Assembly (NCBI GenBank): GCA_034231615.1
Contig: CM067322.1
Coordinates: forward strand, 69,363,354 to 69,427,353
DNA: 64,000 nucleotides
Source of the DNA: Meghimatium bilineatum
Lineage: Eukaryota > Mollusca > Gastropoda > Stylommatophora > Philomycidae
Direction: 5' to 3'
Shown: positions 17,301-20,300 of the stretch, piece after piece
How positions within the stretch are numbered: position 1 is the stretch's first letter
How the letters are laid out: each line of letters begins with the position of its first letter
Notes under the pieces: model-generated
What the model was told of the DNA's origin: nothing
Seen by the model: the letters and a program-made list of their open reading frames with translations, nothing else
The model's database searches: none
Made by a program: the position numbers and the translations under genes

Positions 17301-20300
17301 CTTCGTCAAGATCAATTTGGGTCCATTCTCATTAAGTGACTAAACCATGTCAGTCTCTGCTATTCAGTATATTTGACCTCAGACATTGTTCAAACAGTTC
17401 TTGTAATCTCTTCATTCCTCATGATTTCTTCTTGTTCTGTTTGCTGCTTTTCTTAGACATCTCATTTCACAAGCTTTCTCTCATGTTCTTTAACGAGTGT
17501 CCATGTCTGACATTGATTTTGGTGTAAAGATTGAATTTATGATTTGCCTTTTGGCTTCCATTTGCTATTGTCTAGGTGAGATTATATGTAATTAATGACT
17601 AGTGTATTGCATGGATTTAAAAGTGTGTAAAGAATAGTAATAATTTGACCTGCCATGCATGTTGTAGGATGCAACTAAGGGGGGGGGCTAGGCATGTGTC
17701 GACTATCCTTCCCTTAAAGTGTCAAAGTGGCCCAAAATGACATTCTGAAGTTAGATTTGTCTGGCTTAAAATCATAGATGCCACAGCCATGCTGTAAACC
17801 ATGACACAACCAATTATGTTAGCAGGTTATGAAGTAAATAGTTTATTCATTTATATTGGTAGGTTATGAAGTAAATATTGGGCCATTTATGTTGGTAAGT
17901 TATGAGGTTATGAAGTAAATGTTGGGCCATTCATGTTGGTTGGTTGGTTGCTGGTCCAGCAGTCCATGGGATCATGCCCTTTGACCCAATGCCATTGTGT
18001 GATATATGCATGTGTTTGTGAGCTGTAGTTTTGTTCCATGTATCTGGCCCTGGAGGGAGATACCGGATGACATCCAGCTCTGGACATTAAAAAAAGTGGT
18101 GGTCAACAGTTTGATAGGGATGAGTGCACAGCCAGCACCTTGGAGTGTGTTGTGGTTGTATTCTGTTCAGGTGGTTGTTAAGCTGTGCATGTTGTGTGCG
18201 CAGTCAGAAGATGATACTCTGGTCTTTTCTTTCCAGGAGGTTGATACTGTCTTTAGGATTTGGGCTGGTCATATATTTATATATTTCCCTCCTAGTGTTT
18301 CCCATGGCCCATCTGTTCATCCAATTTTCTTTGTTCACAGATTTCAACATCATTTTAACTGTGTACATGGTTGTTTCTGTATAAGGCTGTTCTTGTTGTG
18401 CTCCCATCTTTGCTAGTCTGCTTTGTCATTGCCAGGTGTGTTTGAGTGGCCAGGAATCGACTGCATAACAATACTGACTTCATAAGATCTAAGCAGCTGG
18501 TTGGCATGGTGATATATTTCAACTAGATCAGGTTTACAATGTCCATCACATTCCAGTGCTTGAAGAGCAGACATAGAGTCTGTAAAAATAACAACGTTTT
18601 GGACTTTTGATGGGAAGACATCAAATATGGTCGTCAATGCAACTTCTAGTGCTGTTATTTCAGCTTCATAGTTAGAACATATCTCCCCACAGGCATCAAA
18701 TAACTCATCAGATGTTTTGTCTGGATATTCTATATAGACACCATAACCTACTTTGAAAGCAGACCCATCAGTATAGACATGAATCCATTGTTCTGGGTAG
18801 GTGTCTATTGTTTTCTGTGTTTCTTTCATAAGACTTACTGGGTCAGAACATTTTGTTCAATATCTCTTGTGTTTTGATTTCTGGCAGTTTAAAACCTGCA
18901 TGTAACTCACGTTGGTAAGTTATGAAGTAAATATTGGGCAATTTGTATTGGTAGGTTTGAAATAAATGTTGGATCATTTATGTTGGTTGGTTATGAAGTA
19001 AATTGTTGGATACTTATGTTGGAAGAGTATGAAGAGAAAAGTTATAATTTGGATCACTATGACATAGCTGTTTTGTTACAAACATTCATATAGTCAGTGT
19101 TGCTTGTGAATGTATACAAGGAGTCTAACCTTGTAGCTAGTTGCGTAGACTTGATACATATTTGTCAAAAGGCGATAGATAGGAAGGCTGTCACAGGCTA
19201 GGGAAGCCACATAAATTAAAGGCATGCCGAAATTGAATGTATGGGCAGGAAGGCAAAATAACACAGCTCTGCTATAAACCAGCAGCGCAACGTATTTCAC
19301 TCACATGGGGTACCTCACTCACGCTTCCGGACGGAAGTCACACAAACTTTTAATGTTGGCTATCAAAGAGCGAACACAAACAAACAAATTGATATAGAAT
19401 GGCATTTTGTTACACACAATTTCATGTTTAAGGAAAGCTACATTGACATGTGTAGCAAAAGTTATTAGATAGTGGTCAAAGACTGGACCTAGTATTGAAT
19501 ACAGTCTATTTTCATCCTCATTGCAATTTACTTTAGGTTTATGAATTGCTGAAGAGGAACAAAATATCAAATGAGGAGTTGTCACTGGCCTTGTTTATAG
19601 TACAGCACAGGAATGATCAAATGGGGGAGAATGTATTGAATTACTGCACTGACCTACATACTGATAGTACTGGGAAAGAGGTCAAAATCATGGACAAAAT
19701 TGTGGAGCTGATGAAATATTGTGGCCATGTGAGTGATTTCATTTTCCATGTTGTAGTTTGTTATAACAATTGCACATTTTTGGTGTGTCAATCACAGTTT
19801 TTTCTGTGAGACATTTGTCTTGAACAATTTTTTTGCAAAGATGTTGTTTACAAATACTGACCGCACTGCACTCTAAATGTAATCTTAGTGCTGCTCAATC
19901 AGTGGTCATTTGTTGTTATTTGTCCATCACTGATGACTACCAATTGCTACATCCACTTTAGGAAATATAGTCAGTTATGTCCTTGCCTATGAGTTCGTAG
20001 ATGGCTAATATGCACTATTCTGATTGCACGGTCTTTGTACAGACTGGAAATTGTATGACTACTTTGGATACTGTCTGACCTGCCCATATCTTTTTAGACC
20101 ATTAGTTCTTGACTTTCCTAAAGCTGATCCGTTATTACAGTTTCTCATGTTGTGGTGACCCCCAACCATAAAATTATTTTCGTTTTTACTTTATAATGTG
20201 TTTCCCGATGGTTTTGGCGACCCCTTGTGAAAGGGTCGTTCGACCCCCAAAGGCATTGTGACCCACATGTTGAGAACAACTATTCTAGGCAGTCTTCTCT

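What the first reader, a model, noticed from the sequence alone, without database searches (positions are those of the whole stretch)
20100..20282. SPIN-like hAT element in TRNT1 intron 7
The inverse strand follows the SPIN layout (GGGGGTCGAACGACC, AAAATAATTTTATGGTTGGG, CACCACAACATGAG) and sits between octamers fitting nTnTAGAn. SPIN elements are known for patchy, horizontally acquired distribution in tetrapods and a few invertebrates. A copy here would add a host or give a clue to the species.
Basis: partly seen in the sequence, partly recalled or inferred. Interest (0 to 1): 0.75.

Follow-up and report, generated by a model that had tools for sequence, protein, structure and literature searches.

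The report
SPIN transposon in a land slug
A short 'jumping DNA' copy inside a land-slug gene belongs to SPIN, a transposon family also found in bats, snakes, a scorpion and a blood-sucking bug, and was most likely passed between unrelated animals; it is a well-supported new host for a known kind of element.

Summary
Window 20100-20282 is a decayed 183-bp non-autonomous SPIN element (hAT, Buster group) with both terminal repeats and an 8-bp target-site duplication matching at 6 of 8. [quoted passage not shown] A 30-base SPIN core occurs 349 times with at most 3 mismatches, against 0 for the reversed control. The fit gives at least about 600 copies, best about 2,300, with no firm upper limit. 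Decayed autonomous copies exist; one on chromosome 15, about 3.0 kb, has both ends and a perfect 8-bp duplication. The per-site majority of seven relics is 92% identical to a Myotis bat protein and 83% to Rhodnius over 170 residues, and lies in one supported clade with bats and Rhodnius. That fits horizontal transfer, not inheritance. It is a new host of a known family; Biomphalaria already has about 1,000 SPIN-like copies in print. Age is poorly fixed, tens of millions of years. All seven relics read are broken.

The parts
20100..20282 (-). non-autonomous SPIN (hAT, Buster group) element, 183 bp, decayed (16.4% from the 40-copy consensus, 13.9% outside CpG), antisense to TRNT1
20092..20099 (+). 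target-site duplication, copy 1 (TTTTAGAC)
   Evidence: 6 of 8 match to the other copy; family test
20283..20290 (+). target-site duplication, copy 2 (TTCTAGGC)
20267..20282 (-). 5' terminal inverted repeat of SPIN (TAGTTGTTCTCAACAT; family consensus CAGCGGTTCTCAACCT)
20100..20115 (+). 3' terminal inverted repeat of SPIN (CATTAGTTCTTGACTT; family consensus CAGTGGTTCTCAACCT)
2092..2364 (+). TRNT1 exon (PolyA_pol head domain), upstream limit of the host gene as recognised
4762..4860 (+). probable TRNT1 exon holding the RRDLTVNSMF motif; borders approximate
   Evidence: motif recalled
21917..22087 (+). last recognised TRNT1 exon; the element lies between it and the upstream exons

Best explanation
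A SPIN transposon entered the ancestors of this slug from another animal lineage. Its transposase, made by about 3-kb autonomous copies, cut and pasted both itself and short internally deleted derivatives into targets of the form nTnTAGAn, duplicating 8 bp each time. One such derivative landed in a TRNT1 intron. The family then died, and this copy has since drifted neutrally. Shown here: element ends, duplications, copy family, decayed autonomous copies sharing the 3' end, and transposase kinship. Inferred: horizontal transfer, the mechanism in action, and neutrality.
For: Ends and duplication. In 40 aligned copies the left and right octamers agree at 4.93 of 8 on average, against 3.13 (sd 0.18, maximum 3.75) in 2,000 reshuffles; the majority target is nTnTAGAn. 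30-base core: 18 exact, 187 with at most 2 mismatches, 349 with at most 3; reversed control 0 each time. Of the 20 best Buster-type transposase matches fetched, 3 (L093, L103, L106) have the SPIN 3' end downstream within 1.5 kb on the same strand; L093 and L103 are 81% and 72% identical to L106 in their best pieces, while the other 17 have no SPIN end and are 30-40% identical. Full-length relic on chromosome 15 with ATCTATAC on both sides. Protein kinship and trees. Two mouse genotyping primers printed in PMC2767504 match the slug consensus at 18 of 19 (the 20th base lies outside the element) and 18 of 20, in the same order, with 0 of 3,000 shuffles reaching either.
Against: No SPIN reference sequence could be aligned. 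18 of 40 copies have fewer than 6 matching bases in the octamers. The 5' end was seen in only 1 of the 5 relics whose upstream DNA I read far enough. Pfam gave 0 families for 5 relic pieces, and the PDB gave 0 for the one piece tried. The transposase majority was joined from broken pieces of seven relics, so its identity values are approximate. The N-terminal tree is mostly unresolved.
Confidence: 0.95

Rival explanations
1. The element belongs to a Buster-type hAT family inherited vertically since before molluscs and vertebrates parted; the likeness to SPIN is selection on the transposase.
For: Buster-type transposases are many in this genome (1,591 first-look candidates), and 23 proteins without organism names form a sister group.
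Against: The seven-relic majority is 92% identical to Myotis, while a conserved TRNT1 exon is 61 of 91 (67%) identical to PDB chain 4x4w_A, human by recall (one gene only), and the slug's own 17 other Buster relics are only 30-40% like its SPIN. Non-coding ends match mouse primers. Less than a tenth of residues changed does not fit 500 million years of inheritance (date recalled).
Confidence: 0.04
2. SPIN entered the ancestor of all land snails (or of pulmonates) once and came down to Meghimatium, Bradybaena and perhaps Biomphalaria by descent. This does not exclude the main reading; it moves the entry back.
For: Bradybaena encodes a 73%-identical piece; Biomphalaria has about 1,000 SPIN-like copies. 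The family mean divergence has no upper bound.
Against: Bradybaena does not group with the slug (unresolved). At the molluscan rate quoted, 7-14% decay gives roughly 43-85 million years, younger than the split from Hygrophila (199 Mya); the rate is uncertain and the sample of copies is biased low.
Confidence: 0.3
3. Contaminating DNA or assembly error.
For: None found.
Against: The 40 scored copies sit on 21 of 25 chromosomes, 39 of them 80-85% identical to the window copy, and the window copy is flanked by TRNT1 exons of the same strand.
Confidence: 0.01

Closest known systems
SPIN (SPACE INVADERS) hAT transposons of tetrapods and Rhodnius prolixus
   Same: terminal repeats, 8-bp nTnTAGAn target, short non-autonomous copies sharing ends with about 3-kb autonomous copies, transposase clade, many copies; the published features are recalled
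   Different: host is a stylommatophoran slug; the relics read are all broken; consensus not compared with the published one
SPIN-like hAT of Biomphalaria glabrata (PMC5440852)
   Same: a pulmonate gastropod with about 1,000 copies and no intact transposases reported (passage seen)
   Different: a freshwater snail of another order; sequence not available here for comparison
SPIN-like transposase pieces in Bradybaena similaris, Centruroides and Hydra (protein records)
   Same: 73%, 73% and 68% identical to single slug relic pieces
   Different: Hydra lies outside the SPIN clade; the others are one or two records each
Ac/ZBED-like hAT elements of the same genome
   Same: hAT superfamily (30 loci fetched)
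   Different: unlike dimerisation region (read by eye); of the 30 loci only L036 holds a SPIN copy, a short one beside the domain

Membership tests
SPIN (hAT, Buster group) | terminal inverted repeats of about 16 bp, CAGYGGTTCTCAACCT (sequence recalled) | tested here: met
   consensus ends agree at 15 of 16; window copy decayed but alignable
SPIN (hAT, Buster group) | 8-bp target-site duplication nTnTAGAn (recalled) | tested here: met
   4.93 of 8 against 3.13 shuffled; 22 of 40 copies at 6 or more, 18 below; window 6 of 8
SPIN (hAT, Buster group) | non-autonomous copies share both ends with autonomous copies | tested here: met
   both ends in 1 relic (L124 with L127); 3' end in all 7 relics, 4 of which were picked because of it
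SPIN (hAT, Buster group) | transposase falls in the clade of bat and Rhodnius SPIN | tested here: met
   14-row clade, support 96/88, 7 of its rows unnamed; 79% single-relic and 92% majority identity to Myotis
SPIN (hAT, Buster group) | high nucleotide identity to published SPIN consensus | not testable with these tools
   no Repbase, Dfam or eukaryote nucleotide set; two mouse primers agree
SPIN (hAT, Buster group) | horizontal, patchy distribution | tested here: inconclusive
   identity and trees fit transfer; donor, route and number of events not resolved

The most novel reading that the evidence does not exclude
Land gastropods are long-standing hosts of the SPIN clade proper, and helped carry it between vertebrates and arthropods, for example through shared parasites. 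The slug's wave would then be as old as or older than the 15-45 My tetrapod waves.
Probability: 0.12. Interest if true: 0.65.

Novelty: new member of a known kind. Interest (0 to 1): 0.4.

Why it matters
It adds a terrestrial mollusc, with autonomous relics and not only short copies, to a textbook case of DNA passing between animal phyla. It also makes the timing and direction testable: orthologous insertion sites in Arion, Deroceras, Bradybaena and Meghimatium would date the arrival, and non-coding ends can be compared with tetrapod SPIN.

Tried and rejected
One batch of ten 2-kb stretches was read instead and held 0 copies, too little to use. Copy number was therefore estimated from the mismatch classes of one 30-mer; 400 copies do not fit, 600 is marginal, 800 to 10,000 fit about equally, so only a lower limit is firm.

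The 40 aligned copies were the best matches to the window copy and so are biased toward intact ones; their 9.0% mean divergence (7.0% outside CpG) is likely too low for the family.

The Pfam hAT dimer family led to other hAT groups (judged by eye) and was dropped. A first N-terminal majority wrongly mixed non-SPIN relics and was discarded; one search repeats it with 4 SPIN relics only (18 of 163 positions left ambiguous). Tree rows: hits aligned over too short a stretch were left out, leaving 46 of 61 hits and 33 of 41.

Text searches for SPIN DNA strings gave 2 papers (one of them looked into) and 0. The papers of Pace 2008 and Gilbert 2012 are not held; what I say of them beyond passages seen in other papers is recalled. 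Viral contigs: 12 loci with a 15-mer, not examined. The phage collection gave no match.

I saw no report of SPIN in Meghimatium or other Stylommatophora in the listings of searches (some capped: 30 of 133, 20 of 230 and 15 of 30 listed), nor in term searches of the Meghimatium and Deroceras laeve genome papers; in the Arion paper 'spin' occurs twice, of which I saw 'spinal' only. Most subscription papers are not held there.

Full report
What is there. The minus strand of 20100-20282 carries the three motifs quoted. The element is bounded by terminal repeats and by octamers TTTTAGAC and TTCTAGGC, 6 of 8 alike. It lies between recognised TRNT1 exons on the plus strand, antisense to the gene.

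Which genome. The window lies on contig 25 of a 1,612,235,226-bp, 32-contig genome. The paper on Meghimatium bilineatum (PMC10770140; abstract and two named sections read plus one term search) reports 1.61 Gb, 25 chromosomes and 7 unplaced scaffolds. I saw the lengths of 24 of the 25 chromosome contigs: 16 agree with its table to two decimals (for example C1 135.71, C14 68.08, C25 105.18 Mb) and 8 differ by 0.01-0.03 Mb. A mitochondrial fragment reads as a gastropod-like COX1, judged by eye from memory. That paper's main text names neither SPIN nor hAT.

The family. A search with the 183 bp scored 40 of 798 candidates; all match, one being the window itself and the other 39 at 80-85%. I fetched all 40 with flanks and aligned them; the consensus is 187 bp. 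Mean distance to it is 9.0%, or 7.0% without CpG sites, over the 39 other copies; the window copy is at 16.4% and 13.9%. Transitions at CpG sites run at 20.1% against 7.4% at other C/G and 1.7% at A/T sites, as expected if the copies were methylated; that cause is inference. The octamers agree at 4.93 of 8 against 3.13 when reshuffled; 22 of 40 copies reach 6 or more. A 30-mer core is found 18, 68, 101 and 162 times with 0, 1, 2 and 3 mismatches (the 68 counted by hand from the listing), with 0 controls. A beta-binomial fit prefers about 2,300 copies, but 800 to 10,000 fit nearly as well and 400 does not.

Autonomous relics. A recalled Buster-type query gave 150 scored of 1,591 candidates. Twenty were fetched, and three carry the SPIN 3' end downstream: L093, L103, L106. 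Four more relics (L123-L126) were chosen because a 3' end lay near, and L122 re-reads L093. Apart from L106 itself, these seven are 50-81% identical in protein to L106 in their best pieces; the other 17 fetched are 30-40%. All seven are broken by stops and frame changes. One, at C15:25941188 to about 25944164, has both ends and ATCTATAC on both sides. I read upstream DNA of five relics and saw the 5' end in that one only.

Kinship. Two protein searches returned 41 of 120 and 61 of 100 candidates. Named ones, with identity to single relic pieces over differing lengths, are Myotis 79% (both pieces), Centruroides 73%, Bradybaena 73%, Crotalus 74%, Paroedura 73%, Tenrec 76%, Molossus 76%, Hipposideros 74%, Rhodnius 71%, Hydra 68%; lower ones include a myxozoan (59%), an amphipod (45%) and a carp (46%). 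The per-site majority of seven C-terminal relics is 92.4% identical to Myotis, 90.5% to Hipposideros, 82.9% to Rhodnius and 77.4% to Hydra. In the tree of 48 rows it lies in a 14-row clade (96/88) with bats and Rhodnius and seven unnamed rows; Hydra and the myxozoan fall outside. The N-terminal tree of 35 rows is star-like around bat, scorpion, snake, gecko, snail and slug. For scale, a conserved TRNT1 exon is 61 of 91 identical to PDB chain 4x4w_A, one gene only.

DNA-level link to a mammal. Two primers for the mouse Ate1 locus (PMC2767504, one passage seen) match positions 1-19 (18 of 19) and 56-75 (18 of 20) of the slug consensus, in order; no shuffle of 3,000 exceeds 14. That mouse carries SPIN is recalled.

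Age. At 1.645e-9 per site per year (value used by PMC9392753, passage seen), 7.0-13.9% outside CpG sites is about 43-85 million years. The sample is biased low and the rate is uncertain, so I claim only tens of millions of years. A passage of PMC3621081 puts transfers of several transposon families among tetrapods at about 45 to 15 My ago; its reference list holds the SPIN paper of Gilbert 2012.

Verdict. A true SPIN copy in a new host, most likely after horizontal transfer, with no intact relic seen. Ordinary for the family, yet a clean extension of it to land slugs.

Noticed in passing
window 59701-59900, 35241-35372, 32531-32652, 9738-9863, 5849-5972, 1389-1476, 55361-55460: A dispersed repeat, aligned over 90-130 bp at 78-88%, recurs at these places. 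It also lies inside one SPIN relic (L122 1851-1956), so some copies moved after SPIN, and near another (L125 1380-1505).
   Followed up: partly
40-copy alignment, CpG sites: CpG transitions in SPIN copies are 2.7 times those at other C/G sites, hinting that transposons are methylated in this slug's germ line.
   Followed up: partly
window 56962-57171: Seven perfect copies of a 30-bp unit.
   Followed up: no
window 61662-62292: Twenty copies of a 32-bp unit at 94%.
   Followed up: no
L009 (C2:121989805-121990428): Nuclear mitochondrial insert with ND4-, ND2- and COX1-like frames, read by eye.
   Followed up: partly
L036:2866-3051: A further full-length short SPIN copy about 1.1 kb from an Ac/ZBED-like hAT domain.
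   Followed up: no
window 54575-54859, minus strand: Guanylate kinase domain exon, perhaps MAGUK (the MAGUK label is a guess).
   Followed up: no
protein records P0002, P0018 (Centruroides) and P0057 (Hydra): SPIN-type or near-SPIN transposase in scorpions and Hydra; hosts I did not know of.
   Followed up: partly
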